Below are positions 1-38,747 of a DNA stretch of 64,000 nucleotides, piece by piece. A program made the translations under genes and the position numbers. The notes under the pieces are model-generated. The model saw only the letters and a program-made list of their open reading frames with translations. It did not search any database and was not told where the DNA came from. Position 1 is the first letter of the stretch, and each line of letters starts with the position of its first letter. The DNA lies in NCBI GenBank assembly GCA_030280995.1, contig JASXTE010000005.1:26464501-26528500 (forward strand). Direction: 5' to 3'. The DNA comes from Hemileia vastatrix (Eukaryota; Basidiomycota; Pucciniomycetes; Pucciniales; Zaghouaniaceae).

Positions 1-2
1 TG

Positions 3-3825: not shown

Positions 3826-3865
3826 CATCACAGAAAAATTGGGGGGGTATTGCTAGCAATACCCC
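3826..3865 (+). repeat. Terminal inverted repeat, copy 1, left end
   Basis: Begins CATCACAGAAAA, then seven G, then the palindrome GGGTATTGCTAGCAATACCC extended by one G and one C. The inverted partner is at 30003-30042, differing at only a few bases. Directly inside, TTTGATC-like repeats occur at about 4003-4070. Confidence 0.9.
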
Positions 3866-5760
3866 TTGCTTGAACTCCGTTTAGCCACAAATCTATGCTT
3901 GAATTATGCACACATCATCACCATGTAGGAAATTGTTTGACCTTACATTTAGTCAGAGATTTTTCACAAATTGAGCTCAAGATGAACCTACATTGATCAC
4001 CGTTTGATCTTGTAAAATCCTAATTTGATCATCAGTTTAACTCCCTTTGATCTCACTTTGATCTAACATAAGCTTTTGCATATCCAATATGTCAACTATT
4101 CACTTTCAAAAAGATTCGTAATGAATTTCACATGGAATATTAGAAACAAAACCAGTAATTTTGAGTGAATGGCTCATCAAAATGATTAATCTACAACAAA
4201 ATACCATCAAAATTCAATCTGATTACTGAAAACTTTTGGTAAAATGACTAATAGATATTTAAATTGGAAAATAATATTCCATTTCTCAATTTCAAATTCA
4301 AAATATAAATCCTCGTTTGAAATGTGAATTTTGTAGATTCCTTGCCTTCATATATTATGAGTAATATTTGAGGTATTTTACACCTTTGTAAATATGGTGT
4401 TGTGCTGCTAGAAATTATCTCTGTTTCAATTCAACTTTATTGAAGCTTAATTCAAGAATGATACATATTTTATAACTATTTTGAGAAAAAAGTCACTAGT
4501 AATGAATTTAGCCTTTTATCTGTCCTTTATTAAACCTCACTTAATCCTACTTAAATCCAAATTGACCCACAAAAACCTTATTTGGGATATTTTTTAGCCC
4601 AGGATGATTCAAGATTGGAGCAAAATATTATTTTAAATATCCAATATGCCTATTGATTAAATTTCTTCAAGCTTACTTTAAATTCACTTTAACATTAACT
4701 TTCACAGGAAATATTAAACACAAATCTTGAAAATATAGTATTTAAAATCATAATAAACATAATATAATATGCTTACAACAAAATTTTCTTTCTGGATTAA
4801 TTGAAACAAAAAATTGTTCATTTGTGAAAATAGAAAAAATGCTATCCATCCTGAATTTAGAATTCATTTTTAAAAATTTAATGCCCCCTCACTTTCAAGT
4901 TTATCATGTATTTCAAAAATTATATTTTTAATAATTTTGTGAATAGTACACCTGAGATATAAACTTGGGGATATCAAAAACTAAAACATCAGCAAATTGA
5001 AATGTTTTTTATTGTTATGAATGGAAATAATGATTGAAAAACACCATTGGAGCAAGTTTGATTTTGAATAATAGGCATACTTTCTCATGTAAATTTCAAT
5101 AAAAATAATTTTTATTCTTACATAAGTTGCGGTGGATACATTTGAGCTCAAAAAGAATTAAAATTGACAAAATAAGACTTCTATAATTCATATTCAAAAA
5201 TGAAATCACCCTTCATTATCTACCTGTAAACTATTTTAAATTGAAAAATTTCAAAGTCAGTATATACTGATGTTATTTATTCTTCTAAAAATTTATTATA
5301 TAGATTAATAGTCATAAACAGTTGACATAGATGTTAAATTTATATAAGCAATCTTTAATTCATAAAATGATAAAACTATCTTTTATGTAAAAAGTGATGA
5401 AGGAAAAAAATATTATTAAATACTATCAATAAAATTGAAGATAGAGCATATCAAAAGTTTAAACTTAATTTCAATTTTGATATCATCATTTTATTTTATT
5501 TTACTTGAGTAGAAAACAGATTTTAAATCTCAATATAATTTTAAATCCCATTAATTTGTAGATTTCAACATTTGAAACTATGAAATAAATATTTATGAAA
5601 GAATTTTACAATATTTGCCCTTCTAAAAACTCATAAATCCAACTTCAAATCTTCTAACCTTCACAAGTAACCACAATGCATTCTGAAAATACTCTATATT
5701 TAAATAATAAAAGGTAAATAAAATTATGTTTTTATTCTTTATTTCAATTTTTGATAAATA

Positions 5761-5791
<31 letters not shown>

Positions 5792-7500
5792 ATTTCTTAA
5801 AAAGTCTAAGAGGGAACTTAATAGTGGTTTTGGCATTAGATATATAGATTCAACTTTCAAAAAATTTGTTTGGAATAAATTACAAAGACAAAAAGGATAT
5901 ATTTTGATGTAAGAATACCGATTTAGGTTCTCTTAAAATATTATTAACCATTTTTATGGAATATTAATCCATGGTTATCATTCTTTATGATATTATCATA
6001 GAATTTTTTCCTTTTTTAATATAATGATTTTCTATTGTGTGGTATGTAGGCTAAGATAAGTTTAAAAGATTTATTGAAGATATATATACCAGAAACAGTA
6101 TAATCTGTAGATTTATAACTATAACTTACTTTTCTGATGTTTTACATCATTGATAAGTAGCTCATGCATTACACAAGTAAATAATTATAGTCTCTGGAAA
6201 TAATTCCTTGTGAATTTCAAATTTTTTGTTATTCTTAAAATCATTACTCAAATAAACTAAAAATTTCTTCAAATATTGATTGAAAGAAGGAGTTACAAAA
6301 TTTTATTTTGTAGTTATAAAAGTTTGAGTTATTTTTCATATTATCAAGTATAATGAACATTTGTAAATTTTAACTTGAAAACTAGTGATCATAGCAAAGT
6401 AATACTGGAAGAATCAGATAAAAAGGGTGGAATAAAGTCATAGCACAACAGGAAATGATACAAAATTGTTGATTCTTATCTCACAAAATTCAACATATTT
6501 TTAACATATTTTACCACCTTTAGATAATGTTTAGTGGATTTTAACATTATTATAACAAGCAAACTTAACAATGTTTTGATTTTTTTAACAAAAATAAATA
6601 TTGTTAGATCATTTTTTTAAAAAATATGACTTATTTTTATGCTTTATCTACAATAGTTAGTAGTTTTTTTTGCAGAAATTACTTGTTTTGATATTCTATT
6701 TTTGAATTTTTTAAGAGACTTCATTGAATTAAAGTTTTGTAATAATTTTTCATTAAAGCATCATATTTTAAATCTAGAGATTTGGTTTTGAAATAATATA
6801 TATATTCATGTTAATTGACTCATTATTTTTGGATTGATAAATTATGTTAAAATTGGGATTGCTTATTTCTAGTGAGTGTACATCATAGTTTGTTTTCAAA
6901 TCAAAGATTAATAAATGGTGAAATTTGGTAAAATTCTAAATATCTTTTAAACCTTTTTGATTTAAATAATGTTTAATGTTATGTAATCATTCTATAAGTA
7001 GAACACAGTTAAAATCTGATAATGGTACATTGCTTTCAATTTCTAATACTAAAATTCTATTCTACTTGAAACAATGTAAACTAAAGCTTAGTATCTCATA
7101 AGAAACTCACAATTTTCAAAAATCATATTTCCAACTTTTTAAACATGATACACATTAAAATATATTTTAAGAATAATTTCCTAATTAGTTTCAAATACTA
7201 GAAAATAATGACCTCAATTTATTTTAATACTTAAACCATTCTGATGAGTGAATTTCACAATCCTCTAAGTAACATATGGTTACCATTTATACACATATGC
7301 ATGATTTCTCCTTTTGTTTAATTTTAGCTGAATCTAAAAAGTAAAATCACATGTTGAATATCATCTATAGATAAACTTCTTATACTAGAAGCTAATATTT
7401 CATATAAGAAATTTGTTATTGAGTTTGGGAAACATTAATAAGTGTTGGGTATTATAATTGAGCCATTTATTCAAGTAAATAAAAAAGGATGACCTTCTAA

Positions 7501-7537
<37 letters not shown>

Positions 7538-8303
7538 AAAATTAATTATATAGTAGCATTTAACCATGTTTTTATACTAATGTCATATAAAAAAAGGGAT
7601 TGAACTAAAACTTTCAGTAAAGAAAATAAAAATAAGTTAAGTTAATATTCTTGTTTATATTCTCATATTTTTGAAATGGCTTACTTAAGGGAGAAAATTA
7701 TTTGGTTTTAGAGTACAAGAATTTCTAGATAAAAATCTTCACAATATAGTTTGACCCTCTCAAAAAGAAAATTCCTCAAATTTTACTATCACATTTTATA
7801 TATTTGTTAAGTAATAGAAAATGGAGTTGTGTCTTTGACAATGAAGCTTTAAAAAATGAAGTAAATGATTTAAATTTATAATATAATTTTTGAAACAATA
7901 AATCATGTATTCAAAAAAAATTATATATCTTACAATCAAGATAACAGTATTAATTAAGCAACTCTAACAACTTTGGAAAGAAAACAAGAAAAAAATAATT
8001 AGTAAAATGCATAAGTTATTTTTAGAATTTAAGGAAACTTAATAGCTCTACCTGTAAACTAGCCTTAAAGCAGGTTTGGATTTAACATGTGGAAATTCAT
8101 ACATAGTACCCTTCCATCATTAGAGCAGAATAAAATTTATGTAGTTTTATTTTTTTAATTTATAATAGTATTTTTATTTTTGGCTTTTTCATTAGTATAA
8201 CTATATATTTTTTAACTTTTTTGTTTTTCATAACATAATTTCAAAGATGCACATCACTACTTCAAGATGAAACTCCATATAATGTAATAAATGAATGATA
8301 TAT
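3866..8303. other. AT-rich non-coding end region of copy 1 (outer part)
   Basis: No gene, no long open frame. Four TTTGATC/TTGATC motifs lie close to the TIR (about 4003-4070) and may be subterminal transposase sites. TA microsatellites are at about 5758-5791 and 7507-7535. The whole region recurs inverted at 38000-42392 in copy 2, so it is a fixed part of the element. Confidence 0.6.
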
Positions 8304-8564
8304 CACCACACAATATGGGGGGCGGACTTGCTAGCAAGTCCGCAACCTTGGACCCAAACTCACCATAGATTGAACACACATTGAGCTATTGATAAAGGAA
8401 CCATACAATCAGGGATAAACACCACTCAGCAGAACAGTTTTAGGTGGGTGTTCAAGTAGAGTTCAGTATGGGTTCAGTATGAGTTCAGTCTGACTTCCAT
8501 CTGAGTTCCATCTGAGTTCAGGTTGAGGACTTGCTAGCAAGTCCACCCCCTATATTGCGTAGTG
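8304..8564 (+). mobile_element. 261-bp MITE with TAT target duplication
   Basis: Starts CACCACACAATATGGGGGG and then the palindrome CGGACTTGCTAGCAAGTCCG. Ends with the inverted counterpart ...CCCCCTATATTGCGTAGTG. TAT flanks it on both sides (8301-8303, 8565-8567). The inverted copy of this region near 37930 lacks it and shows the uninterrupted site, so the insertion and its duplication are directly visible. The inside has no coding capacity. A run of GTTCAGT(C/A)TGAGTTC-like repeats lies at 8459-8520 next to the right end, as in the 4.6-kb element at 46241. Confidence 0.92.
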
Positions 8565-8567
8565 TAT

Positions 8568-9955
8568 TATAATGAATTTTACAAGAGACTTTTCAAAAAT
8601 GGTGATTAAGAATACTTATTATAATTTTTTAAATTTTTATTATTATTCTATCTCTTGAAAGGAGATGGCCATATCTCAATTTAATTAGTTTTTCCTCAGA
8701 AAAATTTATTCTTGATCTAAATAAAATTGCATCACTATTAACTAGATGTTATTATACAATTTTATCAATTTTTTTATCTGAACATAGTTGAAAGTATGTA
8801 TAAATTAAAGTGTTTCCACATAGTCTCACTATTATCCCACCATTATTTTCACATTTAGATTTCATTATAACTGTAAAATAAGTTTTTCAATAATTTTAAT
8901 AATACCTTAATATTTAATAATTTAGTTACATAGTAGATTTTTTATCCTTTTTTTATATGAGGCTTATTATATAAACACCACTTTTAGATTTTATCCATTT
9001 TGATGTCTGATAATTTAAATTTTCATTTAACTACCCAAATTATATCAAAAAAAATTCAAAAGTATATTTTTTTAATGTACTCTTTTTGATAAACTTATCA
9101 TTTCTTATAGGTTATTCTTCAACTATTTATTGTAATTAATTACCCACTCATTTATGGTCTATTATTGTTTTTCATTACATACAGACAAAATAAGGATACT
9201 CTCATATTATATTGGAGTTTTAAATTAAAAAGTAAATACTAGTGGCTGGTATTAAATATGAAGTTGTTATAACTAAGTTGAACATTAATTAATTATTAAA
9301 TGGCATTTTATATTACAAATTTTATTGAATGTATATAAAAATAACACTCAAGAAATATATATAAGATATATATATAACCATTGTATATCAAAAATGAAGT
9401 ACTTATCAACATGGTCTTTTTAAATGACTTTCAAATTTACTTAAAGAGACATTAATATTACCAATTCAAATTTTATATCAAATATAACAATATTATTATT
9501 TCATTTTTAATTATTTTACAAAAAATTTGAGTTTCAAAGTAATTTAATTCAGTATTTAAAGAATGTTTTTGAAAAATATTTTTAAAAATAGAAATAACCC
9601 CTCACAAAAAAAAATATAATTTTTTTTACTTACAATTTGCACCATATTTCTACCCTTAAAATATTTGTATTCTTCTAACAAAAATATTTTTTAAATAAAT
9701 TTAAAATTTTTTTCATTATTCAATTACAAAATGTCAAATTTATAATTTATTTTACCTTACTAAAAAATTTAGTTGAAAATTTAATTTTGTATTTCCAAAA
9801 AATAAACTTAAATGTCAAAAATTAAAAAAACAAAATTATAAATATAATTATGAGAAAGAGGTAGATTAAATTTATAATATTCATATAAAAAAAATTCATA
9901 TATTTTATGGTGTTTGAATTTTAAATTTAATGTATTAAAAAATAATTATTAAATA
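8568..9955. other. AT-rich non-coding region of copy 1 (inner part)
   Basis: Very AT-rich with homopolymer runs. No gene or structured element recognised. Present inverted in copy 2 at about 36541-37930. Confidence 0.6.
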
Positions 9956-9956
9956 A

Positions 9957-11739: not shown

Positions 11740-13651
11740 ATGGAAGAAGATTTTATAGACATGTAAGTTCATGTTTTGCTTATCATTTTTCTATATTTCT
11801 TTAATACTTTCTCAACCATTATATTATTAATATGAAAAGTAAAACATAATCTCGTACTTGCTGAAAGCATACAGGATAATGTTTTGCTTTTCATAATAAT
11901 AACTAGATTGTTTGTACTTTAACTTTAATTTATTGATTTTTAAGTTGTTTCAAAGTCTCGTACTTGCTGAAAGCATACAGGACAATGCTACAATTTAAAA
12001 ATTAATAATTTATTGAAGTATAACTTTCTAATTCAATATATTGATCGGAGCAAGATTTTTCATTTTATATATGTGGATATCATAATTCCGTAAATTTTTT
12101 AATATTACTAGTGTATTGGAGTTATACTTTCATTATATTATTAATATTAAGTGTAGAGCCAAATCTCCTACTTGCTGAATGCATACAGGATAAAGCTATA
12201 CTCTTTATATGTATAATTTAATAAAGTATACCTTTGAAACGCTTTCTTAATATTTGAAATTAAGAAAAAGTATATAAATTTACTAATATGTAGATATGCT
12301 AACTTTTGTATTTCTAATATTGAAGATATGATAAAGTTAAAGGTATCATTGCCTGATAATTGAAATTATGTTACTATTTTCTAATTTTTGATTTTTTTCT
12401 ATTTTATATCAAAATTGAATTCTCTTAGGATTGAACCATCAATGAGTAACAATTTGAAAAAAAAAAACGGCCAGGGAAGAACTCTAACAATAGGTGGGCG
12501 AAAGACAATGCTACTGGAATGAAACTTGTAAACGCTCTTGGAATGGATACAAACGGGAAGAAGCCACATTTCTATGCACAATCTTATGCAAATAATATGA
12601 CAGATTGCAATAATTATTACAATTTTTTTCCTGGATGTTGTATTTATAAACCAAAAGGTGTCTTAATACCTAATGTTCTTGTGCAGACTTTTGAAATTCA
12701 TGAGCTCAAAGAACTAGATATGTTGAAAGCTACGTTGCAATGCATTAAGGATCTTTCTTACTGCGAACATGAAATTAAAAATAATGGTTATCATCAAAGA
12801 GCTGGTGGTTTTGGAAAAATGTTTGGTGGTGGCTTTATTTTAGATAGAAAGAAATCTTGACATATTCGTAAGTATCACTTTTTTTAATTTAAATACTGAA
12901 TTTTTGAATGCTTTTCCTTGCAGATGAATACACTGATGATATTGTAAAAACGGATGAATATAAAAAACGAATGAAGAGGATTGCAATGTACTTTGAATAT
13001 TTTTTTAAAAAAATATCATATGTAAAGTACAATGAGGCAACTAATCTTTGCGCAAAACTTGGTATTCCTGGATTTTCAAAAGTTTCTAGTGAAGAAGAGG
13101 GTGTACCGTTTGCTAGTAATTTAACTTGGACATCTGGAGGGAATGGTAATGGGTTCTCTAATGAGGTTCATCTCGATAAGGATGCAAGTGAGTATACTTT
13201 AGGAATATTTTTTCCTAAAGATACAGAAAAAAACACCATTCATATGAAGTATGATAAGACCCAACCACGACAAATAGGTGGAGAACTTATGTTTCCCGAA
13301 ATTCGAAGTAAAATCAACTTTGAAGCAACTAATGGAATAACAGTGACATTATGGCCTGCCAATCAACTAAGGCATTTTACCTCAAGATGTCATGAAATTC
13401 CTGGCTTCACTAGGATAGGTTCTTCTATTCAAATCAGCACTAGACTTTTTCATGCTATAGAAAAGCTTAATGTTTTTGATATTGATATTTCAGAATACTT
13501 AGAAATTAAAAAAGAAAAATTTAGGTTAGAATATTTGATTAGTGCTTTGAGAGTTTTTTTGAAAAGAGATGACTTAATAGAGGAAGAAATAGAATCAGCA
13601 AAGTATTATTTATCTAATGTTAAGACAAATCTAAAAAATATAGATATATAA
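11740..13651 (+). pseudogene. Tet/JBP-like 2OG-Fe(II) dioxygenase gene, copy 1 (one premature stop)
   Basis: Three exons fit by phase: 11740-11762 (short, ATGGAAGAAG...), 12494-12867 and 12924-13651, with donors GTAAGTTC and GTAAGTAT. Exon 3 carries the double-stranded beta-helix signature of this superfamily: H-x-D in EVHLDKD, a glycine-rich GGELMF strand, a distal H in QLRHFTS and an R in GFTRIGSSIQI. Tet/JBP enzymes oxidise 5-methylcytosine or thymine in DNA. The frame is open except for TGA at 12858-12860, where copy 2 has TTA (Leu). Exon 1 and the long first intron are less certain: a nearer acceptor at 12428 would lead out of frame in both copies. The gene points towards G1 (convergent). 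Confidence 0.72.
11824..12230 (+). repeat. Three hairpins with a conserved core inside intron 1 of the Tet-like gene (copy 1)
   Basis: A 26-nt core beginning CTCGTACTTGCTGAAAGCAT and ending ACAGGA recurs at 11851-11876, 11957-11982 and 12165-12190. The third has CTCC and GAATGC variants. Each core is flanked by its own inverted stem, and the three stems differ: ATGAAAAGTAAAACAT/ATGTTTTGCTTTTCAT, TTTTTAAGTTGT/ACAATTTAAAAA, and AGTGTAG/CTATACT. All three are kept in copy 2. Conserved loops on unrelated stems suggest structured RNA or protein-binding sites. No known RNA family recognised. Confidence 0.7.
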
Positions 13652-14450: not shown

Positions 14451-16879
14451 TTAATTTATTGAAAGGCTATGTTTAGCAAAAAAAGGTGATACTGGCTGAA
14501 TGGAGCTCCAGTGATTAAGAAAATCTGCAGAAATAGCCCTAGCAATTCCCGGAGGACTTGGGGTATCAAAGTTTAAAGGAAATGGATCACACTTGCCTAT
14601 AAAAGGTTTTATTAATGTTAAAATATAGTTATTTAAATTTTTCCAAATTATTTCTTCCATCAAATGATTTTTTTTTTCATGTAAATTAAGAAACTTAACT
14701 TCTGATATTACCTCCAAGCAATCAGCTGCTGAAGCCAATCTATGATCTTGAGAGCTCAGAAATAAACCACGGACACCATCGATTATATAGAATGTGAAAG
14801 ATTGATATCGGTGGTGGGAGTATTCAGAATTTATTTTGTTTAGTGCAGCCTTTTGTTTCTCTCTCATTATAGTCAGTTCAGTATTTTCGTTTTTCTCACT
14901 TGATTGTTGAGCTTCACTAGTCTTGCCACTTGATATTGTTGCAGCACAATATTTTGATTTAAGAATGATAATTGACATAATTATATCAATGATAATATTG
15001 TTGATTTGAAGAAGAGTTGACATTGATATATCACGGGTTTGAAGTGCAGTGGGACCAACTTCTAAGCCATCAGAAATCGGACTCTTCAGATTTGAAAGGT
15101 GAGCTAGAAGCTGAAGACCACGTTCAATTGGACAATCTGAGTTAATGTTTTGATGTGATGGAAGCTGGCTGAATTCATGTGCGGTCAGATAAAGTGAAGA
15201 TGATATAAGAGATACCCATGAAGAACGGCAGTGGTCACTTGGGATCATTAATCTCATGAGCATTCGGATAAGATTGGATTCAGGGTGATCCGTTTTCTTT
15301 GTTGAGGAAAGAATTTCAGTATTTAAACCATCAGGATCACATAAATCTTCCATTTTTTTGAAATCAATATTATCGAGTACCCATAGCTGTGAGCTATCAA
15401 TCTCTAAAAAATATTTGCTACAAAAGGAAAAAAAAATAAGTAAAAGAACAAAAGTCAAGACTAAAAATTATGGTAACTTACATAACTCAGTAAGTTTTGA
15501 AAGCCAATCTTCTCCACAAGATTTTTCCCAATGAAAAGTAAACATTGGAATATTTGACATGGGTTCTTGGGAAGAAGTAGAAGAGCGTAATTCAAGGAGA
15601 GTAACAATTTCCAACCACGACCTGAGGACCTTTGCCATGCTGATTCTACCTTTATAAAAATTATGAATTTTACAGAATTCCTCCTGCAAATCAGATTCTT
15701 TTAGAACTGAGGGTGAATAAGTTAGAGGTTTTTTCGATATCTTGATTGGAGTTGATTTCATTGGTAGAGAAGCTTTCAAAGTGGTCAAAGTAGGTAATTT
15801 AGGAGGTGATGGGTATTGCTTCTTAGAAATGAAGGAATTCGGTGATGAGCTGTTTGAATCATCATCTTTATCAAACATATCAACATGTCTTGAAGAAGAT
15901 TTTAAACTTTGCTTTTTTTGATGAACAAGCATAGCTTCATATTCTGACAGTTGATCATTGCTATTTTCATTGCTCTTTTCATCATCTTCATCAGGGAGAG
16001 GGCATTTATGGATGGAACAATCTACAGCAGGTGAGTTTCTGGTACAAAATATCAAAAGAAAGATAAAAAGTACAATATGTAAGCAATAAAAGAGATATAT
16101 GGTAGAATTTTAAAGATAAAAGAATAACAATAAAAAAAAAGGAAACAAGAATATACTCATTATCAAAACCTTTGCTTTTTTTTTAAGATTTATTATTTGA
16201 TACATCAGAAAATTCATTAGCAGAAGCTGGTTTAATACGTCGAACAAAAGAGGAGCCTTGGGATAATCTCTTTTTCTTGGAGCGGATAACAGGTGTTTCA
16301 AGATTTTCCTTAGAAGTTGAAGCATGAGTTAAATCTGATGGTTCATCTGTCTCATCATCATCCCTAATGACAATGATTTCATCAGGAGGAATCATACCCT
16401 CCTCATAAGCTACAAATATATATGAAGAAAAAAAAATATTAATAATCTTATCTACTAATTTAAAAGGAGACAAAAATGGTGATGAACATACATTTTTCAA
16501 GGCTTTTCACATTTTGGAGTAAGTCATTACAAGGGTTAGTTAAATATGAAGGAGAAGGATTATTTTTAAGGATCTTTACAAGCTCTTCTGTTTTATCTCT
16601 AGCCAATTCAAGTAAGTTGCGATACTGAACTCTCGTTATTTCCTGCCTCTCATTGCTAAGTACAGGAGGGTTAGGTGCCATGCCATGTGGCAGACATGGT
16701 GCAAGCTCAAAAGCTTCAAAGCGAGTATCAATCAGAGAGTGGGATGAAACACATTCGGGTGCTGGAAAATCAAATTTTTGTAATAAAAAGATATAGAACA
16801 TAAGTGAAATATATAAATTAAGAGAGAGGAACATGATATACATACAAAGTGGAGGTGTAGGATTTTGTATACTAGACAT
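14451..16879 (-). pseudogene. Gene G1, copy 1: five-exon transposon gene of unknown function
   Basis: Exons by matching splice sites and phase: 16879-16846, 16761-16492, 16409-16157, 16038-15482, 15417-14451, for a product near 700 residues. Exons 3-4 encode an acidic, serine-rich, low-complexity part with basic KKK/KKR patches (nuclear localisation possible). Exon 5 is more globular, with an isoleucine-rich helix and a C-terminal stretch ending ...FFAKHSLSIN. No domain recognised. Two lesions: a TAA at the end of exon 3 (copy 2 has CAA at this place) and one T missing in a T-run at the start of exon 5, which brings TAG into frame. Both the gene and its place between the palindromic array and the Tet-like gene are shared by the two element copies, so it is a constant part of the transposon. 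Confidence 0.7.
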
Positions 16880-17899: not shown

Positions 17900-19636
17900 T
17901 CATGGATCCTGATTAATTTCTATCGAAATTAATTTTGAGACTAGCATATTGAATTTTAGCTATGACCAAGTACTGTAAGTGCCATGGTTTGTATTCAATA
18001 TATTGGTGTTGAAATTAATTTTGATAGGATTCAACAAGTATCATATGGCACCATGCATGAAACACTGACAGAAACCATCAAATTTATGAGGCAATGAACC
18101 TCATAATTTCGATCGAAATTAATATAGACCCCTGCATATTGAATACAAGCCATTTCACATGGACTACACAGACATAGATAAAATTCAACATGCATGGCTT
18201 AAAATTAATTTTGATCGAAATTAACCAAGGCATTAGAACATCAATTTTTATATGGTGTACTTGATCAAACCAGTTTATCTAACTGCTTAGCTTACCTATA
18301 CTTATAGGAATTTTATGCATAGTCCATGTTCATATTAATTTCGATCAAAATTAATGTTGAATAATACATAATGAATACATGCTATGCCACTTACACTTGC
18401 CAGGCATAGCTACCATTAAATATGCCGGTATCAAAAATTAATTTCGATCAAAATTAATGAGCATGATAATCATGAATTTCTGGAGTCAACTGCTTATTTT
18501 TATGCATGGTGCCTTGCCAACATTAATTTCGATCGAAATTACTTTTGATACTGGCATATTGCATGTATATATGCCTGGAAAGTGTAAGTGGCATAGTGTG
18601 TATTCATTATGTATTGGTCAACATTAATTTTGATCGAATTTAATGTTGACATTTGCATATTGAACCCAAGCCAGAAAACAACCCAGAAGATTCTTCATAA
18701 AACTTCCCATTAATTTCGATTGAAATTAAGGCTGACCATATACATATTGAATGGTAGTTATATCTGGTCTGAGTAAGCGGAGATTACTTATATTCAATAT
18801 GTATTGGTCAACATTAATTTTGATCAAAATTAATGAGCATTTTGATCATGAACTTTTTCAGTCAGTTAGTTGTTTCAATGCATAATGGCATGCCAACATT
18901 AATTTTGATCAAAATTAATGTTGAAATGATATAATGCTTTTTTGCATGACATGTAAAGGACGGCAAGTATTTTTAAATATTGAAATTTACTATACATGTT
19001 GAGGGTAAATATAAAATTTACACATCCATATTAATTTCTATAAAAATTAATGTTGACCAATACATAATAAATAGTAAATATGCCTGGCTAGTGTAAGTGG
19101 CAAAGCTTTTTTTCATACTGCACTTGGCAACATTAATTTCAATCAAAATTAAGGTTCATGATTATCATCAATTTATTCAGTCAGTTGCTTACTGTTATGC
19201 ATCGTAACATGTCAACATTAATTTTAATAAAAATTGAATTTGACATGCCACCAAGCATTTTTATGTAAGATGAAAAGTAGGGCACTCTATTCTTAAGTAA
19301 ACACATTACAATGCATATTGAGAATGTAAATATCATCTACACATTAATATTAATTTCAATCAAAATTAATGTTGACCAATAAACATTGAACACAAGCTTT
19401 ACAACTTACACACACCAGATATAACTACCATTCAATATGTATATGGTGCTCACTAATTTCGATCGAAATTAATGAGCAGTTTTATGAAGAATTTTTTGGG
19501 TCGTTTGCTGGTTTGGGTTCAATATGCAAATGTCAATATTAAATTCGATCAAAATTAATGTTGACCAATACATAATGAATACACACTATGCCAGTTACAC
19601 TTTCCAGGCATATATACATGCAATATGCCAGTATCA
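17900..19636. repeat. Array of short palindromes (copy 1, truncated at 19636)
   Basis: Inverted counterpart of about 680-2400. It has the same palindrome family (TTAATTTCGATCGAAATTAA and CpG-decayed forms) and the same alternating spacers. The individual palindromes have decayed at different CpGs from those in copy 2. The array ends abruptly at about 19636, where the sequence turns into coding sequence of G4. Copy 2 continues through about 200 more bp of array instead, so one of the two carries a deletion or rearrangement here. Confidence 0.85.
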
Positions 19637-20733
19637 ATTCCTCTTCTTGCCCAAACAACTTTATCATCTCCTTCCCCTTATTAACTACCCATTTCTCAAT
19701 AACACATTGAGTGAACTGAAGCTTTGACTGATCGATTGTATTCAAGGTGGTGAGCCATCTGGTACAGTGGTCGCATACTATGCTTCCCATGACTTGATTC
19801 CAAGTTGATTCTGAAAAATCACGGCAAGTCCAATCAAACGCGAATTTCAGAAAACCTTTTTCTTGCAATTCACGCTCTAAGTTTCTTTTGACAGAAAGTG
19901 GGATCGGTGCTCCTCCTTTTAGTCCTCGAGGCTCAGGTGCTGGAAAAAATTTGGGTAGTCAAATTTTGGATCGCAAGAAGGCTATAGAGTTGGTTATCAG
20001 AAATTGTCGATCAGCTGCAGGATTGGCATGGTTAGAAGATTGGACTTGGGTTAGGACAGTTTGAATGGTTTTTAGTTTGAATTGGCTCCAATCTTTCCAA
20101 TTTTCAATCTCCAAAGGTGTTGGGCTGGCAGGATATTTTGTTATTTGTGTTGGTCCCCCAAGACAATACTTCAGAAAGTGGTAAATATTTCAATTTAGAC
20201 TTTCCAAGCTCCTGGGAACATCATTCCTTCTAACTAAGCCTCTTACAGCCCTTAAACCCCGTTCTCGCTCATGAGACTCTGCTGAATTGAGTCTGTGGTA
20301 ATCACTGATACCCATAATGATTGAGGGATTCACTAACAATTCAAATAAGTTAATTAAATTGGTTATTTTTCAATAAAAGAATACACTACAAATTTGACTT
20401 ACCTGCTCCACTTGTGCTTGCTCCTTGGTTAGGCTGAGCAGATGATGATTGGTCTCCGAAAAATTCCCTCAATACTTCACTAGCCCAATCTCTTCCTAGC
20501 TGATAAGCTTGCTGATCAGCACTTTCAGAAGCAGAAGGATGATTGGGATTAACATTTCTCGGTTCTGAATGAGACTCTTGGCCTGGATTGGGATTAGGTG
20601 GTACAGATTGAGATGCATGTGGAGGTGGATCAGCAGAGGGTGGTGGAGGAGTATTTCCAGTATTAGTATGTTGAGGCGGAAAACAATCAGAATCGGTTGG
20701 GTCAACAGACATCCCTTCAAAATTATCATCCAT
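19637..20733 (-). pseudogene. Gene G4: unknown transposon gene, 3' end missing
   Basis: Exon 1 is 20733-20403. It encodes an acidic start followed by a proline/serine-rich segment with a PPPP run and then EVLREFFGDQ. A GTAAGT donor leads to an acceptor at 20333 and exon 2 from 20332. Exon 2 stays in one frame to the array junction if two TGA codons (near 20200 and 19955) are read as former CGA. Recognisable pieces are GISDYHRLNSAESHE, CLGGPTQITKYPASP and FAFDWTCRDFSEST. No known domain. The frame runs into the palindromic array at 19636, so the C-terminus is lost here. The fragment at 3-248 may be the equivalent end from copy 2. Confidence 0.6.
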
Positions 20734-21150: not shown

Positions 21151-24100
21151 TCACCAATCCTACAAATTTCCCCAATCCCAAATTAACACAAAGATGTTAG
21201 TCAACAGAAAATAAATTTGATTAATTTTTTCACTCACTACTGTCTGCAGTCCAATGGCAGCGACAACCTTGTCTTTGATTCCAAACATTCCTTTTTTGTG
21301 CTCGACAGTAGCTGCATGTCCAATTATTGCATCTTTCTTAATCACAATTTGAGTTGCTTTGGGTACTCTTACTAACCGACAATGCACTTGTGGGAAAAGC
21401 TCATAGGGATCCTTTGATGTTTCTTCTGGACGGAGCTCTTTGAAAGGACTTACTATTAAATATATTTGATCATTCTCTTCCTTTGATCTGAAAAGATCAT
21501 CAATTTGCCCAAACTGGCTATCTTTTCCATAGTAGAATTCAATTGTTGAATTAGCAATGTGTCAATGGTAACTAGTAAACCTCTTTCCATGTATCAATAT
21601 GCTTGCTACATTTTCAACTACCCGATCCCCACTTTTCTCCGATGGTGTCAAAGCCCGTCTTGAAGTTTCTTTTCCCATTCGTGCCCTTACCCATTTAGTA
21701 AATAATGCCATACTTAGATGGATCCATTTGTTTTGTTTATCGAGATCAATATGGATTTTTTCAGTCTCACATTGATCATTATCTTCAGCTTCACCAAGAT
21801 CTAATACCCTAGACTTCCGATACCAATGTTTGAGCATTGTTAGCGGTATCTCTCCTGTGGTAAATATTAATAAATTAGAACAGCTGGGTTTTTAAATCAT
21901 TGCTTACAAACATTACATACGTGGATGGTGATTGTTTGGAATTTCAGATAATATATGATTCACCCGCTCTCCAGACCAAGTAGCTGTACCTGATGGTGGA
22001 CCAAGACGCTTTATCATTTCAGGATAATGTTGAGTGATATGCATATTTGGCTTTGCATTAATATTCTTCCAACCCTCTTCAAGGCACTCACGATACTCTA
22101 ACAGAAATTGATCTAGATCTTTAAACTCATTAGTCTGTATATTTTTTAATGTCAAAAAATTGGTGATCGAGCATAATGTTACAAGTGACTTGAGAAGATA
22201 ATATTCTCTTGGTTTATCAGCTGAGGAAGCTGAAGATTCAGATTCTTTAAATTTTTCAAACCAAAGGGGTATAAGTGACAAAGGGAAGTAGAGAGTATAC
22301 AGAATGTACCATTCTGCTGCCTTGAGGGATCCTGCCTTTTTAGATCCTACTGATTTTGGAACACGTGTTAGCCAGGAAGGTCTTCTTACTTGATCAATCA
22401 TCTTCCATACAACCTGTAGCTCTGCTTCTGTGATTCGTGGATTACTACTACCTTCATTTTCTTTCTCCTTACCTTTCCTTTTATTTTCTTCATCTCTAGC
22501 TGTCTCATTTGATGAGTGAGATCCTTCACTCTGTGATATGCTAATGCTTCTTTGCCTTAAGTTATACAATGAATTCCTACTGTCACTGCTGTGAGACTGT
22601 ATTGAGGCCACATTGCTATATGGAGGAATAAATTTGGAGCTGGATGACCTACTCTGGCTTCTTGATCGATTTGTTTCCAATCCTTCATTATCTAGTCCAT
22701 GATGACTTGATGACTGTCTTGAACTCGTACGTCTTTGCCGCTTGTGCTGTCTCGTGTGTCCTGTATCATCATCATCATTATTCGTGGTGCTTAAGCTACT
22801 TCTAAGTTTTTTCGAATGTTTGTGCAGTGAAGTATCAGAAAAGAAATCATCATCTTCTTCTCTTACATGCCAATTTTTATCCTTTTCCAGCTTTCTTTCT
22901 AGATCTTTTGCTGCATTTTGGATTTGAAAATAGCTTAGACTGTGATCTTTTAGGATGCCAAGCATATGTGAATGCATAACATCAATTGAGAAATATTCAG
23001 TTGGACGCCAATATTCAAGGTTATTCAGCTCACTCCATTTTACCCCATGATTTTGAACAATTGATACACACTCCCAATGTGACTTAGAATTTTTCCACTT
23101 TGTTGCCCAGCACATATGATCCTCATGATTCCGTAATGAAAAATTTCCCACATTCTTTTCACTAATTTCATCTTTAGAGATATTACAGAAAGAGCAGATC
23201 ATTTTTGCAGAGTGACTCAAAAAGCCAGCCAATTTTTGTATTGCAGGAATGTCACCTATCAAAGAGAACAATGCAACTCTTAATTTCCGGCCTCGTGGAT
23301 AAAGATGTGTCTTTTCAATCAATATACCATCCCATAGAGTTTGAAGATCATTAACCAGTGGTTTTAGAAGGTGATTAAGCTGTTCACTTGTGGGTTCTGT
23401 TGGTCCAGGTATAATAGCATACAAAAAAAGATTTTCCATTTTGTATCTATCTTCTTGAGGTAGGTTCATACACACCATCATAATATTGCCTACAGACTTC
23501 TGATGACCTCCAATCCTATTGCCACCAGGCCTAAACCAGCTGACATATAAAGTAAACATTAAGTTGCCTGAAGCTATTGTATATTCATCATCATTGCTAT
23601 CCAGAGCTGGAGTGGCTATGGGAAAGTTTTTCCAAATTGAACCATCACAAACATCCTTCATCAAATCACACTCTACACGTTCTGCCACAGGGTTTTTCTT
23701 CTCAATCAGAAGCTCAAATTTGAACAGTTTGATCTTTTCCTTAAGCCAGTCAATAAAAGAATGGTGATGAAATGTTTTAAGAGATAAGTATTTTACATGT
23801 TCTTGATGTTCCACCATCAAATACAGCCTTTCATCACATTTAACTGCAATTTGTCCTGCTCCAAACATTTTTAAATAGCGCTTTGATGATGAAAGAAACG
23901 GTTGATTGCAACATAGTATAGATGGTTGAGATTCAGAGTTATACTCATAAAGAGAAAAGCATTTAGGACAGCATGTTTTAGTGAAAAATGATTGATTGAG
24001 CTTTAATCGACTAAAAACTGTATCTATTGAGCGTGGGACCAGGCGGACACTGCTATCAGAATCCAGTATTCCACTATCACCTAGAAGTTTGAGCTTCTTA

Positions 24101-24538
24101 ATTTCTTCATCCAAAAATTGAGTACAACCTTCTTTGCTCAAATGATGAATAAGAGAAAGCTTTGCTGCCTGCCACATAATTATTTGGCTTTACCGTTCCC
24201 CAAGATTTGAGTTTCTAGAGACTGTTTAAGATAATTCTGCCCCCAATAGCAACTGCCCCTATGTAATAAATCATTGAAACATCATAAAGACTTTAGTTCT
24301 CACATTGAACTATAGATATACAGCTTACTGTTTCTGTGGAGCAGGAACTTCCAATGTTAAGTGGATTGTTGGAAGAAATAACCATCTGGGCCTTCCTATT
24401 TCTTTCCTCTTGATGTTTTGCATAAGAATTAGAGCTTTTGAAAGCCATACCAACTTCAAAGGACCCAGAAGAAGTTTGATACTTTCTATTGACACATCCA
24501 AGATCTTGACATTGACATACATGAAAAAATGGAGGCAT
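21151..24538 (-). pseudogene. Plavaka/Tnp2-type transposase (CACTA-like), degraded
   Basis: Would cut and join the element ends. Exon 1 (24538 to about 24304) encodes a zinc-finger-like start with HVCQCQDLGC and a later histidine, usual for basidiomycete members. The main exon ends at 21921 and holds an open frame of 754 codons. In it are LYVSWFRPGGNRIGG, the hallmark AIIPGPTEPTSEQLNHLLKP, then GDIPAIQKLAGF and KMICSFC. A serine/arginine-rich insertion with RQHKRQRR lies further on. After a GTATGT intron the next exon starts at 21854 and reads to TDPYELFP-like and GMFGIKDKVVAAIGL motifs near the C-terminus. A TGA in that exon (21562-21564, between SYH and HIANS) looks like former CGA. A last short exon at 21159-21151 is plausible. 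The junction between exon 1 and the main exon does not resolve in frame, so at least one more lesion or intron is present. Confidence 0.85.
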
Positions 24539-25614: not shown

Positions 25615-26735
25615 ATGAACTTTAGTAGCTCTTACTTTCCTCATGGAAACCTGCCCACAAACACAAGAACACTTAATAGAATTTTTAATGAGACTTTGCC
25701 TCCATTCAATTCTCACTTTTGTAGATCTATACACAATTTTTGTCATTCACTTTTGGATATGTTACCAGAATCAAATGGATGGAAACAAAACCCTACTGAA
25801 GAGCAATTAGACAGATTTTCATCATCCGACATGAATTCTTGCAACATTGCCTTTGAACTACCTCATCCAGAATCAAATTCAGCGGTATCGGAAAAGTTTC
25901 CACCAATTTTCCGTGAATCTTTTATTGAGCACCTTCGCATGTATGCTTTCCCAGGATCAACTTTCGCTTGGAACCTAGATTGGTTTGACAAATGAAACCA
26001 GGTCTTGGCAAATATTCTCATTAAACACTGGGACAATGCCTTAAAAACCAATAATTTGATTGCATATCCAATTGACTCAACTCAAATTAGATTCTCAAAT
26101 TAAATAGGAGTTCTTCACCGTTGGTTTTTAGGTCATGCTGATAGATTAAGACTTGGGAAGGATTCTCATAGCTCTCAAGAAATAATCAAAGTGAGAAAGC
26201 ATAAATATAGAATAAAAAAAAAGTATGAAAATCCCTTTTTTTTCAACCATTTTTATTTATGACCTTTATTTCAAATAACAAAGATTCTTAGAATTCAGTT
26301 AACCGAACTAAACTTCTTAAACAACTTCCACATTGTGAAACTTATCACAACCTTTTCACAAACATCAAGTGTTGTTCAGACACCGAAATTGATAATGATG
26401 GATCGTTAAGATGTATCTTAATGCAATGGAGGTCTGAAGATTTTTCTAAAGTTGCACAATATCTTGACCAACAACACTTTGATATTCGAGATATTTCAAC
26501 CTACTCTGGAAGTGTGCTAAAGGACTTGGCCTTGTACAAAAGAATCAGTTTGGTTTCAACATTATCCCCTAACCTTAATCCTTCTCATGTCCCCCGGGGT
26601 TTGCGGAATGACTGTTATTCTCCCTTATATCTTGCATCTCTAAATCCTCAACAACTCAGACTTTTAAATCCTCAAAATCCCATAAATTTACCTGCTCTCC
26701 TTGAAATTCTTTCTTCCTCTAATGTGAGTGATTGA
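25615..26735 (+). pseudogene. Gene G6: unknown transposon gene, broken
   Basis: Begins at ATG 25615. The frame reads through TGA 25993-25995 and TAA 26101-26103 (both could be C-to-T changes) to about 26222. A GT...TAG intron follows, and a second exon from 26292 ends at TGA 26733-26735. Total near 340 residues. Pieces with protein character are FIEHLRMYAFPGSTFAWNLDWF, cut here to FRESFIEHLRMYAF, and a C-terminal CCSDTEIDNDGSLRCI followed by MQWRSEDFSKVAQYLD. No named domain recognised. The phase across the intron is off by a base, probably from the A-run at its start. Its 3' end overlaps the 3' end of the SNF2 gene by 17 bp on the other strand. Confidence 0.55.
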
Positions 26736-29147
26736 CAAACTCCCTTAATAATAGTTTTGCACACTCATACTCCTCATTTCCACTGTTTGGGACACTTAGC
26801 CTTGAAAACAAAAACATAATTTTAATGATTACTATAATCAATAAAATTTATAAAAATGAAATTTGGCTTACATTTTTAGCTCCATTTTTTTCCTTTGAAT
26901 CTTATACATGCTGAATTCTATACTTCCTTGTACAAAATAATTCAAAACATTTACTTCATTTTGCTGCCCCATTCTATACAGCCGATCAACAGCCTGTTGC
27001 TCAACTGCTGGATTCCAATTTAGCTCCTATTTCAACATTTAACATATAAAAAATTTAATATTTTTGTTCTTAATATGAAATAAAAGACATTGAGCTCACC
27101 ATTATATATACATTTTGAGCACACCTGAGATCTATACCCACTCCTGCAGCCTGAATCGTTCCAACCAAAACTTGGCAATTTTTATTAAAATGGAATTCAT
27201 GCATATTTTTGTCTCGCTTTGTCCTTCTGAGTTCACCCGTAAGCTGGGTATACCTAATATTGTGGTCATCTAAAGCCATTTTTATTCTATTTTGAAATAT
27301 TAGAAAATTGTTTTTAATAAGCCAACACAATTTTGTAAAACAATTCATTATAGAATCACTTACATCTGCAAAAAGTCTGCAAAGTTGGAGAATATAACAG
27401 CTTTTGGAAAATTTATACCCCTTTCACCAGACAAAAAGTTTTTTAGGTGGCCTATAAGATGACAAATCTTTGCGGAATGCTGCCAGGTGAAATCAAAAGT
27501 TGGAGTTTCATCCAGATTTTCGTAGATTGGATGGTTGCAGAATTTTCTTAAAATCATCAGCTCTCTTAGAAACTCAGATGAGTCCCAAGGGAAGTCAATG
27601 CTTCTGGAGGGCCCATATCGCTCAGTGAATCCTTCTTGAAGCACATCAAGTTTAGACCTCCATGGATCTGCTAATTGAACCGATATCCCCCTTTGAATCT
27701 TTTTTGGAAGAGACAAAATTGCATCCTTTGTTCTACGTAGGCTTATGACTTTCATTAAGTGATTGATTGATTTAATAGAATTAGCCTTTCCTTTTTGAAA
27801 ACATGGAAAAAGGAAATTCTTCCATAACCAGTCTTCTTGCCACTTTTCGAATCTAAGAAAAAATATGAGAGTTTGAAGGTCAGTGGGCCTTTTCTGAAGT
27901 GGAGTTCCAGTCAAGCATAGTCGGTGTTGGGATTCCAAGTCAAATATTGTTTGAGCCCTCTGCGATTAAGGATTTTTAATGTAACTAAAAGAATATTTAT
28001 AAAAATTGATTATAAAAATTAAGTTTTAAGTTTTAGATATAGAAATGGGCACTAACTGAGCTTCATCTAAAACAACTCTATACCAAAAGAGCATTTGAGT
28101 CACCGGTATCTTTTTTTGGCTTTGCTTTTTTGACATCGTTGGGCTAGCTATTTCATAGGTTGTTGAAACAATAGCAGTGTCCTGTAGCTCATTGACATTA
28201 GTATTTTGACAATCCTTCCCATAAAGAACCTTGAAAGGAAGCGCATTATCTTCAAAGTGCACACTTATTTCATTGATCCAATTCGATAGTGTTGCCAGTG
28301 GGCATATAATCAGTGTGGCTGAACTCCGATTAATACCTTCTTGATTTTCTGATACCTGGAATTGTCTTGCTTCACCTTGAGTTGCACTTATAAGAGAAAG
28401 AGTTGAAAGTGACTTTCTCAAACCCATATCATCAGCAAGTAATGACCCGTTTCCTTCAGGCGTTAATTGATTGTTAGGAAACTGATCTTTATAGTCATTA
28501 AATCCAGTTCTAAGCCAATGGTTGTCCTGGTGCCTCCACATGATATCCAACTTTTCCTTTAACATTCGTTCATTGTCAATCATAAAATTTATTGCTTGAA
28601 GTTGATGTGTTTTGAGAACTGTTTTGATTCCTCGGATAAGTTGATCAGCTTTCCAATCTTGAGTACTCTGAGATATTTGGAAAGAGTCTTCAAAAATTAC
28701 ATGCGGGATATTAAAAAAGATAGTGGAGTCGTAGTTCAGGATTGGACATAAATTGATTTGTGCAGAAGAAAATGCTTCTTTAGCAAGACTGATTAGTGTA
28801 CTTGAAGAAAAGAGGCATCCCCAAAGTTGATACTGATTACCAAAAACTGGAACCAAGTAAGCATGAAAATAGAAAGGCTTCATAGGATTCAAGGCACTTC
28901 TTTGGTTTAAATGGTGAGATCCAGAGCCAATGTCACCCAATAGTGGTCCAATGTGCTGACTCTGCACTTGTGAAAGATTACCGACAAGGGTTGGTTTTCT
29001 TTCTTCAAATAGTCCAAAAATATGAACATTTGAATGGCCTCGCTGTAAAATCGTGGGGGTCGGTGAGTTTTGAAATCTTGAAATTACATTCATATAAATT
29101 TGATCGATTTTTATTGAGAACTGTCCAACACATCTGAGACTTGACAT
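26719..29147 (-). pseudogene. SNF2-family ATPase (Rad5/HLTF-like) carried by the transposon, degraded
   Basis: Five exons: 29147 to about 28057, about 27959-27364, 27286-27100, 27026-26872 and 26800-26719. Exon 1 has the Rad5-type approach KTHQLQAINFMIDNE, motif I LLADDMGLRKSLSTLSLI, motif Ia LIICPLATLSNW and motif II DEAQ. Exon 2 has LCLTGTPLQKRPTDL and ISLRRTK. Exons 3-4 have QLTGELRR, GTIQAAGVGIDLR and the terminal AVEQQAVDRLYRMGQ. SNF2 enzymes move or strip nucleosomes and other DNA-bound proteins. No RING finger is seen between the lobes. Motif I is damaged: the usual G-K-T reads R-K-S, so ATP binding is probably lost in this copy. The donor after DEAQ also seems to lack one G. Last exon overlaps G6. 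Confidence 0.82.
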
Positions 29148-30002
29148 ATTAAGTAAGAATAGTATCTGAAGATAGTGGTTGTTAAAAGATGAATTGAAGC
29201 AAAAAATGAATAATCAGTTTTGAATAAAACGACAAAATAACTTTTTAGCATATGCTATGCTAAGCTCATGATTCTTTCACATGTATTATTATTATCTTTT
29301 TAATGAATATTGGAAGTAAATCAATGATAACTGAAATGAATAATATGGCTTAAAAATAAATCTTGAGCCTATAGAGTAAATTTTGGTTTGTGGAGGAAGA
29401 AAAATTTTCTCAATAAAAATGTGCTTTATTGTTACATTATAATCACAAAATAGAATAATTTCACTCTTATTACACTTATTTATGTTTCTGTCTAATAGTA
29501 AAATGCTTTAGATGTCAGTTCAAAATCCAAATTGAAACTACTACCTAGAACAATGTCTTGATACTAACATACTTTTTGTAAGTCTTTGGACAGACACTTA
29601 TGGTGATCTCAATAATATTAAAATTGATTTGAATTGTATGTTTTATCGAATATCTATGTAGTCTAGTGTAATAATTGAGATACTACAGTTTAACCTTCTG
29701 TTACCAACTTGGCAAGAAAATATATGTAGATATTGTTAGAACGAATATCAAATTTTGCTTTCCACAAGATGGGAAAGTGAATATTATGATATGTTAAGTG
29801 ATATGTTCAAGCTTTGCTCAATCTGTGCTCAGCTCAAAATCAAAGTAATCACCAAGCTCCAAGAAACCTGTGATTGAGTTTGGTTGAACCTAGGTCTAAC
29901 TGATTACCAAATCTTTGTCCAATTAATTTAAATCTGGTTTCACAATGAACTCCCAACAGCCTTCCAACAGCTTTCCAACCACTTCCCAACATTTTTAAAT
30001 GA
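29148..30002. other. Subterminal region at the SNF2 end of copy 1
   Basis: Non-coding. Close to the TIR (about 29945-29992) the phrases CAACAGCCTTCCAACAGC and TTTCCAACCACTTCCCAAC form a short repeat series of CTTCCAAC-like units, a possible transposase-binding subterminal region. Confidence 0.5.
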
Positions 30003-30042
30003 GGGGTATTGCTAGCAATACCCCCCCAAATTTTCTGTGGTG
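30003..30042 (-). repeat. Terminal inverted repeat, copy 1, right end
   Basis: Read on the minus strand it begins CACCACAGAAAATTTGGGGG and then has the palindrome with core TTGCTAGCAA. It is the inverse of 3826-3865 and is followed by AATGTATG, the duplicated target. Confidence 0.9.
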
Positions 30043-30045
30043 AAT

Positions 30046-38694: not shown

Positions 38695-38747
<53 letters not shown>

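What the first reader, a model, noticed from the sequence alone, without database searches (positions are those of the whole stretch)
3826..30042. A 26-kb CACTA/Plavaka-type transposon that carries DNA-demethylation-type and chromatin-remodelling genes
One bounded element (40-bp TIRs, AAT duplication) holds a Tnp2/Plavaka transposase, an SNF2/Rad5-like ATPase, a Tet/JBP-like dioxygenase and at least three unknown genes (G1, G4, G6). Fungal Tet/JBP genes are known to ride on DNA transposons, described mainly for the KDZ group. A CACTA-like transposase together with Tet/JBP and SNF2 inside one delimited element looks like a set for counteracting silencing. That role is inference.
Basis: partly seen in the sequence, partly recalled or inferred. 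Interest (0 to 1): 0.88.

Follow-up and report, generated by a model that had tools for sequence, protein, structure and literature searches.

The report
Giant rust transposon with anti-silencing-type genes
A 27-kb jumping DNA element, present in very many copies in a rust fungus, carries its own DNA-demethylase-like enzyme and a chromatin-remodelling motor; the enzyme is a known cargo of rust transposons, the remodelling motor is not one I could find described.

Summary
3826-30042 is one DNA transposon: 40-bp TIRs, AAT duplication, tnp2 transposase, TET/JBP-like dioxygenase, SNF2 ATPase. It lies inside an inverted copy of itself, so its empty site is in the window. The genome has 1,324 left ends and 1,241 dioxygenase marks. 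Of 32 TIR pairs of 24-31 kb on one contig, 32 hold the dioxygenase and 32 SNF2; 26 of 26 examined hold the transposase; 15 of 15 copies tested have 3-bp duplications. Eight copies differ by 0.16-1.85%. Against an older subfamily dN/dS is 0.45-0.49 (dioxygenase) and 0.32-0.34 (SNF2). Copies show a strong excess of CpG, above all TCG, transitions.

It is EnSpm/CACTA-type, not Plavaka. TET+ EnSpm elements of rusts with CAC..GTG ends and 3-bp duplications were published in 2025 (Kojima), so the kind is known. The SNF2 gene, nearest to a group of rust proteins apart from Rad5, is an addition I found no report of. The window copy is damaged in all six genes; "G1" is not supported. An anti-silencing role is likeliest but inferred.

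The parts
3826..30042 (.). Copy 1: whole element, 26,217 bp
   Evidence: TIRs + AAT duplication; empty site in copy 2; 6 full copies align end to end apart from local insertions and deletions
3826..3865 (+). Left TIR with palindrome GGGGTATTGCTAGCAATACCCC
30003..30042 (-). Right TIR
3823..3825 (.). Target duplication AAT, left
   Evidence: both copy-2 alignments share copy-1 positions 16492-16494
30043..30045 (.). Target duplication AAT, right
8304..8564 (.). 261-bp non-autonomous insertion, TAT duplication, of a related CACCAC..GTAGTG family; not at this site in copy 2 or in the six other copies, but relatives sit elsewhere in copies a (one) and f (two)
12519..13651 (+). TET/JBP-like dioxygenase, exons 12519-12867 and 12924-13651; in-frame stop at 12858-12860 in this copy
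   Evidence: PF20515; HxD and H..R patterns present
14451..16879 (-). G4, unknown protein, 715-aa model of 5 exons
   Evidence: no Pfam family above cut-off
17906..19637 (.). Array of at least 14 copies of a 32-nt palindromic unit (ATTAATTTCGATCGAAATTAAT core)
19638..20733 (-). G5, unknown protein, 3' part lost in this copy by a ~990-bp deletion at 19637/19638
21160..24538 (-). tnp2-type (EnSpm/CACTA) transposase, 1,080-aa model of 3 exons; this copy has stops and a non-acidic residue at the first catalytic position
   Evidence: PF02992; motifs; stops
25615..26735 (+). G6, unknown protein, 350-aa model; C-terminus weakly like that of G5
26868..29147 (-). SNF2-family ATPase, 685-aa model of 4 exons (a further 3' exon is possible); altered P-loop in this copy
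   Evidence: PF00176 and PF00271; the 21 best database matches are Puccinia; tree
30046..42432 (-). Copy 2 (inverted), part before the insertion, with its own left TIR near 42393-42432 and an open dioxygenase gene
1..3825 (-). Copy 2 continued: aligned with copy 1 over 675-3825; 1-674 matches the stretch that copy 1 lost (array, end of G5); runs off the window

Best explanation
Shown: a ~27-kb, high-copy EnSpm/CACTA-type DNA transposon of a rust fungus whose standard gene set is a DDE transposase, a TET/JBP-like dioxygenase, an SNF2 ATPase and three unknown genes (G4, G5, G6); near-identical copies point to recent activity. The window copy is a decayed member inserted into an inverted sister copy. 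Inferred mechanism: the transposase moves the element by its TIRs, leaving 3-bp duplications; the dioxygenase oxidises 5-methylcytosine on element DNA and the SNF2 motor opens or slides nucleosomes so that transposase genes and ends stay accessible. Together they slow methylation-based silencing and its mutational aftermath, in trans for all copies.
For: Gene set constant: dioxygenase and SNF2 each in 32 of 32 TIR pairs of 24-31 kb on C2, transposase in 26 of 26 examined. 3-bp duplications in 15 of 15 copies tested. Recent activity: copies b and d differ by 43 of 27,084 bases. Constraint: dN/dS against an older subfamily 0.49 and 0.45 for the dioxygenase (p 0.005, 0.002), 0.32 and 0.34 for SNF2 exon 1 (p 0.010, 0.025). 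The thing to be countered seems to exist: CpG transitions 18 times and TCG 29 times the rate at other C/G sites. SNF2 helicase motifs I, II, III, V and VI are in place in copy b, and like short SNF2 proteins recur in Puccinia. Kojima 2025 gives the same reading for other TET+ elements.
Against: No activity, expression or methylation data. Copies show CpG-type mutation, so any protection is incomplete. The two older-subfamily elements are related to each other, so the dN/dS tests are not independent; a piece of G5 is not significant (p 0.08), and transposase, G4 and G6 were not tested that way. Within the main subfamily pN/pS over the gene ORFs runs from 0.36 to 3.85 with no clear constraint. 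No structure support: the single-sequence fold failed (pLDDT 36.5), and no solved structure matched the dioxygenase exon by sequence. SNF2 motors can also promote methylation (DDM1/HELLS, abstract) or serve repair.
Confidence: 0.6

Rival explanations
1. The dioxygenase counters methylation, but the SNF2 protein works in DNA transactions of transposition (repair of excision gaps, replication-coupled copying) and not on chromatin.
For: Best PDB sequence match is the Rad5 repair helicase, E 5.3e-47; non-rust database matches include many RAD5B-named helicases.
Against: No RING or HIRAN domain found by Pfam; the rust proteins and the element's split from 13 other SNF2 proteins with 100/100 support; chromatin remodelers match over the whole motor too.
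Confidence: 0.3
2. The dioxygenase and SNF2 genes are captured passengers without a role for the element.
For: TET/JBP genes pass between transposon lineages in rusts (Kojima 2025); no clear constraint within the main subfamily.
Against: Present in 32 of 32 TIR pairs of 24-31 kb; dN/dS 0.32-0.49 against the older subfamily; similar short SNF2 proteins in three Puccinia species.
Confidence: 0.08
3. The dioxygenase makes a lasting modified base (5hmC-like or other) that marks or shields element DNA, rather than leading to demethylation.
For: PU-type dioxygenases are far from characterised TETs and the source paper leaves this open. JBP2, which couples a dioxygenase to an SNF2 domain, makes base J.
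Against: No glycosyltransferase or other second modifying enzyme recognised in the element by Pfam; three genes are unknown, so this is weak.
Confidence: 0.2
4. The composite is an artefact of nesting: the dioxygenase belongs to a different element inserted into the 26-kb one.
For: The dioxygenase region also occurs outside the 26-kb interval, at 32-34 kb.
Against: That second copy is the same element in inverse orientation; six other full elements on C2 have the gene in the same place.
Confidence: 0.01

Closest known systems
TET+ EnSpm families of rusts (Kojima 2025, PMC12730594)
   Same: Rust host, TET/JBP gene inside the TIRs, CAC..GTG termini, 3-bp duplications, transposase weakly like Plavaka but classed EnSpm
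   Different: The paper's main text does not hold the word SNF2 (0 occurrences); its supplement with sequences could not be read, so a member with SNF2 may already lie there unremarked
PlavakaB (Kojima 2025)
   Same: 2-3-bp duplications, C2C and H3-4H transposase motifs, TET+ members in Agaricales
   Different: Termini CATCA..TGATG; here CACCA..TGGTG in copies a-f; Pfam Plavaka below cut-off
JBP2 of kinetoplastids
   Same: A TET/JBP-type dioxygenase coupled to a SWI2/SNF2 domain (passages of PMC11065753)
   Different: One fused cellular protein acting in base J synthesis; here two genes on a transposon
Arabidopsis VANDAL elements with VANC
   Same: Transposon encoding its own sequence-specific anti-silencing protein (abstracts)
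   Different: VANC is neither a dioxygenase nor an SNF2 motor (recalled)
Rad5-type SNF2 helicases
   Same: SNF2 motor with the helicase motifs
   Different: No RING or HIRAN domain; separate group in the tree

Membership tests
EnSpm/CACTA (rust TET+ type) | 5'-CAC..GTG-3' termini | tested here: met
   Copies a-f begin CACCACAG and end CTGTGGTG; 11 of 11 pairs with flanks held begin CACCACAG and end GTG, one with a changed base further in. The window copy's left end reads CAT.
EnSpm/CACTA (rust TET+ type) | 3-bp target duplication | tested here: met
   15 of 15 copies: window copy, c, d, e and 11 pairs of which three are a, b, f
EnSpm/CACTA (rust TET+ type) | tnp2-type transposase domain | tested here: met
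   PF02992 56.3 bits, cut-off 28.6
EnSpm/CACTA (rust TET+ type) | D, D, C2C, H3-4H, E motifs | tested here: met
   All placed by eye in the copy-b model; first D present in 5 of 7 copies, missing in the window copy and copy a; motif definition from Kojima 2025
Plavaka (PlavakaB) | CATCA..TGATG termini | tested here: not met
   CACCA..TGGTG in copies a-f
Plavaka (PlavakaB) | Pfam Plavaka PF18759 above cut-off | tested here: not met
   19.2 bits against 26.3; not listed for the full model
KDZ | 7-8-bp target duplication (Kojima 2025) | tested here: not met
   3 bp in 15 of 15
TET/JBP-like dioxygenase | PF20515 match | tested here: met
   83.9 bits, cut-off 27
TET/JBP-like dioxygenase | HxD..H iron-binding triad | tested here: met
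   HxD pattern in 8 of 8 copies; H..R pattern in 7 of 8; assignment of residues by eye, no structure
TET/JBP-like dioxygenase | Oxidation of 5mC | not testable with these tools
   none
SNF2 ATPase | SNF2 N-terminal and Helicase_C domains with helicase motifs | tested here: met
   PF00176 191.9 bits, PF00271 63.6 bits; motifs I, II, III, V, VI by eye in copy b
Rad5 orthologue | RING and HIRAN domains | tested here: not met
   No such Pfam match up to E 1

The most novel reading that the evidence does not exclude
The element carries a split JBP2: a TET/JBP dioxygenase and an SNF2 motor that act as one transposon-borne machine, the motor exposing nucleosomal element DNA to the dioxygenase. With G4-G6 and the palindromic array supplying targeting, it would be a self-contained, sequence-aimed demethylation system that let one 27-kb family reach over a thousand copies in a methylating, hypermutating rust genome.
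Probability: 0.3. Interest if true: 0.85.

Novelty: new variant of a known kind. Interest (0 to 1): 0.62.

Why it matters
Rust fungi have some of the largest fungal genomes (abstract of PMC12210899), and in at least one rust CpG methylation is thought to silence transposons (passages of PMC12774611). A very large, recent, high-copy DNA transposon that carries a TET-like enzyme together with an SNF2 motor in every complete copy I checked gives a natural test of whether transposons actively resist silencing, and a candidate two-part demethylation machine in which a motor helps the enzyme reach chromatin. Many near-identical copies, bearing a mutational trace like that of methylation, make the question directly measurable.

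Tried and rejected
Rejected: that the dioxygenase is a separate nested element (it is in the same place in six other full copies). Rejected: Plavaka and KDZ membership (see tests). Rejected: gene G1; the ORFs at 10.0-10.5 kb lie in a stretch of 45% GC (element 30%) with an inverted repeat, and 6 of the 7 other sequences have gaps there against copy b. Led nowhere: protein search with the transposase (3 hits, two unnamed and one plant) and with the dioxygenase (none); structure prediction of the dioxygenase exon (pLDDT 36.5), so no fold search was made; PDB sequence search for it; PHROGs for three pieces; NCBIfam gave only general helicase matches far below cut-off. Within-subfamily pN/pS was uninformative. 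Species not identified: I call the host a rust because the SNF2 protein's 21 best database matches are all Puccinia, but at 35-49% identity; Puccinia proteins also occur lower in that list, mixed with others.

Limits of the counts: the C2 sample uses the first 100 exact TIR-core places listed, which form 39 pairs under 60 kb and leave 22 ends unpaired; of the 39, 32 are 24-31 kb and 7 longer; the exact dioxygenase mark lies in 27 of the 32 and 4 of the 7. The 5 of 32 without it were read directly and have the gene, three at 98.8% and two at about 92%. SNF2 was read in 26 pairs and is in all 26, plus the six full copies. Transposase was read in 20 of those 26 pairs. The 7 longer pairs were not read further. 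Gene models come from copy b, so its freedom from stops is by construction. The SNF2 tree holds 24 database proteins that I picked from the 120 listed of 7,555 matches.

Full report
Observation. The interval 3826-30042 is a single DNA transposon. Its ends are inverted repeats (I18, 42 nt, 95% complementary) with the core GGGGTATTGCTAGCAATACCCC, and AAT is duplicated at 3823-3825 and 30043-30045. The core, with up to 3 mismatches, has 6 matches in the window (three ends, each read on both strands) against 0.00 in shuffles.

Self-comparison shows 3826-8303 matching 42432-37929, 8565-16494 matching 37931-30043 and 16492-19637 matching 3825-675, all inverted. So 1-3825 and 30043-42432 are parts of a second, inverted copy, and the 26-kb copy was inserted into it; the two parts abut in copy 1's own sequence at 16492-16494, where AAT stands once. 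Over 15,483 aligned bases the two differ at 195 (1.26%). By the copy-b model the insertion point is at the edge of an exon of G4 of copy 2. The far end of copy 2 lies outside the window.

The TIR core (up to 2 mismatches) gives 2,772 forward and 2,783 reverse matches; because the core is nearly its own reverse complement these are about 2,775 ends read twice. The left end with its inner bases gives 635 + 689 = 1,324, and a 30-base dioxygenase mark gives 610 + 631 = 1,241. A protein search with exon 2 of the dioxygenase had 8,543 first-look candidates, of which 150 were scored; those listed are 99-100% identical, and two of the 150 have a stop inside.

Six complete elements from contig C2 were read. 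Their lengths are 26,975-28,595 bp; all six have perfect 3-bp duplications and align with copy 1 from end to end, apart from local insertions and deletions (copy e lacks 8121-10550 and part of G5 and has a 3.6-kb insertion). Pairwise differences among the eight sequences (these six, copy 1, the visible part of copy 2) over shared bases are 0.16-1.85%; copies b and d differ by only 43 of 27,084, so the family moved recently. Copy 1 lacks a stretch at 19637/19638 that measures 989-991 bp in five of the others and 1,823 bp in f, where a small element sits in it; this removes the end of G5. The 261-bp insertion of copy 1 (8304-8564, TAT duplication) has relatives elsewhere in copies a (one) and f (two), and none was found in b, c, d, e or the visible part of copy 2.

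Co-occurrence on a larger sample. The first 100 exact TIR-core places, on C2, form 39 facing pairs under 60 kb; 32 are 24-31 kb long (median 27,095). The dioxygenase is in 32 of 32: 27 by exact 30-base mark, 5 by direct reading (three at 98.8%, two at about 92% identity). SNF2 exon 1 is in 32 of 32: 6 full copies and 26 by direct reading. The transposase is in 26 of 26 examined: 6 full copies and 20 by direct reading. Of the 7 longer pairs, 4 have the exact dioxygenase mark; they were not read further. Target duplications match in 11 of 11 pairs whose flanks were held, and with c, d, e and the window copy that makes 15 of 15.

Genes. Spliced models were made on copy b, so its lack of stops is by construction. 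Dioxygenase: 358 aa, two exons, PF20515 83.9 bits (cut-off 27), with the HxD and H..R patterns. Transposase: 1,080 aa, PF02992 56.3 bits (cut-off 28.6), with D, D, C2C, H3H and E placed by eye as Kojima describes for the EnSpm-like clade. SNF2: 685 aa, PF00176 191.9 and PF00271 63.6 bits, motifs I, II, III, V and VI read by eye. G4, G5 and G6 match no Pfam family above its cut-off. G5 (its end as seen in copy 2) and G6 share a weak C-terminal likeness (27% over 48 residues, E 3e-4). No convincing gene was found in the left 8.5 kb. Measured against copy b's models, all six genes of the window copy are damaged: stops in all six, indels in G4 and G6, deletions in G5; in addition the first catalytic position of its transposase is not acidic (it is Asp in 5 of the 7 copies) and its SNF2 P-loop is altered. 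In the other copies the dioxygenase frame is clean in b, d, f and copy 2 (4 of 8) and the SNF2 frame in a, b and e (3 of 7). No copy other than b, on which the models were made, is clean in all genes.

SNF2 family. A database search with residues 150-685 scored 7,995 candidates, 7,555 of them significant and 120 listed; the 21 best, 417-706 aa and 35-49% identical, are all from Puccinia triticina, P. graminis or P. striiformis; the best other is a Zymoseptoria SNF2 protein (E 6e-70), after which Puccinia, plant RAD5B-named and other proteins mix. In a tree of 25 proteins, 24 of them picked from that list, the element's SNF2 groups with 7 of the 11 Puccinia proteins (support 100/99), and all 11 plus the element form one side of a branch (100/100) against the 13 others. 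The tool warns that a long branch (a plant RAD5B) meets this group and that the element's letter make-up is unusual. There is no RING or HIRAN match. So this looks like a short, multi-copy SNF2 family known so far from rusts, not a recent capture of the host's Rad5. Whether the Puccinia proteins also lie in transposons was not tested.

Selection and host defence. Two of the 32 pairs (C2:12633255, C2:17220030) belong to an older subfamily. Against copy b, dN/dS is 0.49 (17220030) and 0.45 (12633255) for the dioxygenase (Fisher p 0.005, 0.002), 0.34 and 0.32 for SNF2 exon 1 (p 0.025, 0.010) and 0.44 for a piece of G5 (p 0.08). Both dioxygenase genes carry stops (1 and 3), so the values include their own decay, which raises dN; and the two elements are related, so the tests are not independent. 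Transposase, G4 and G6 could not be tested this way. Within the main subfamily, pN/pS over the gene ORFs runs from 0.36 to 3.85, with no clear constraint. Single-copy changes among seven sequences (w1, copy 2, a, b, c, e, f; d left out as a near-twin of b) show transitions at CpG of 0.045 per site and copy against 0.0025 at other C/G sites, and within CpG 0.071 at TCG against 0.028 elsewhere (p 6e-93 and 2.5e-7). TCG hypermutation of repeats is what Kojima 2025 cites for Pucciniomycotina. The element is thus under the kind of marking that its dioxygenase could oppose, and it does not escape it wholly. Methylation itself was not seen.

How it most likely works. Shown: mobility (nesting, duplications, near-identical copies), gene set, CpG-type mutation, some constraint. 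Inferred from family knowledge: the transposase cuts and joins at the TIRs; the dioxygenase oxidises methylcytosine; the SNF2 motor opens nucleosomes for it and for the transposase. JBP2 of kinetoplastids joins the same two activities in one protein (passages in PMC11065753), and VANDAL elements of Arabidopsis carry their own anti-silencing protein (abstracts). The palindromic array at 17.9-19.6 kb could be a binding site for an element protein; this was not tested.

Comparison. Kojima 2025 (PMC12730594; outline, parts 1-5 of 7 of the text and the figure legends read; supplement not readable) describes rust TET+ EnSpm families with 3-bp duplications and CAC..GTG ends whose transposase resembles Plavaka. 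Our element fits on the points tested (termini, duplication, tnp2 domain, motifs, dioxygenase inside). The text has no occurrence of SNF2. Full-text searches for SNF2 with transposon-encoded, transposase and dioxygenase gave 0 papers, Pucciniales + EnSpm + dioxygenase gave that one paper, JBP2 + SNF2 + transposon + fung gave one review (passages), and rust + transposon + SNF2 + TET gave four, of which I saw the listing, and passages of one; none of what I saw describes such an element. These searches cover open-licence papers only. Iyer et al. 2014, which first described TET/JBP on fungal transposons, is not held and is known to me only by recall and through Kojima.

Verdict.

Noticed in passing
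46241-50835: A second TIR element of about 4.6 kb, CACCACGCAATATGGGGGGCGGACTTGCTAGCAAGTCCGC.. with a TTT duplication; its core TTGCTAGCAA is shared with the big element's TIR, and no ORF of 150 aa or more was listed in it. The 261-bp insertion at 8304-8564 matches both its ends (80% and 88%) and looks like a deletion derivative.
   Followed up: partly
8304-8564; elements a and f (L031, L046, L047): Small relatives of that family have inserted repeatedly into the big element: once in copy 1, once in a, twice (about 830 bp each) in f.
   Followed up: partly
17906-19637 and 459-2406: Array of at least 14 palindromic 32-nt units, with a like array in copy 2, beside the end of G5; may be a binding array or a satellite seed.
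   Followed up: partly
51000-63600: Gypsy-like gag/pol ORFs (by eye) in two groups, with an 805-bp direct repeat (52435-53239 and 60734-61538, 94.7%) and a 747-bp tandem duplication (59114-60607, 98.9%).
   Followed up: no
whole element family: TCG-biased CpG transitions among copies only 1-2% apart; usable as a clock and as a sign of methylation.
   Followed up: yes
L073-L076, L080-L083 (C2:12633255 and C2:17220030): An older subfamily: dioxygenase about 92% like the main one, left end 97%, SNF2 95-97%; the uneven divergence may mean exchange between subfamilies.
   Followed up: partly
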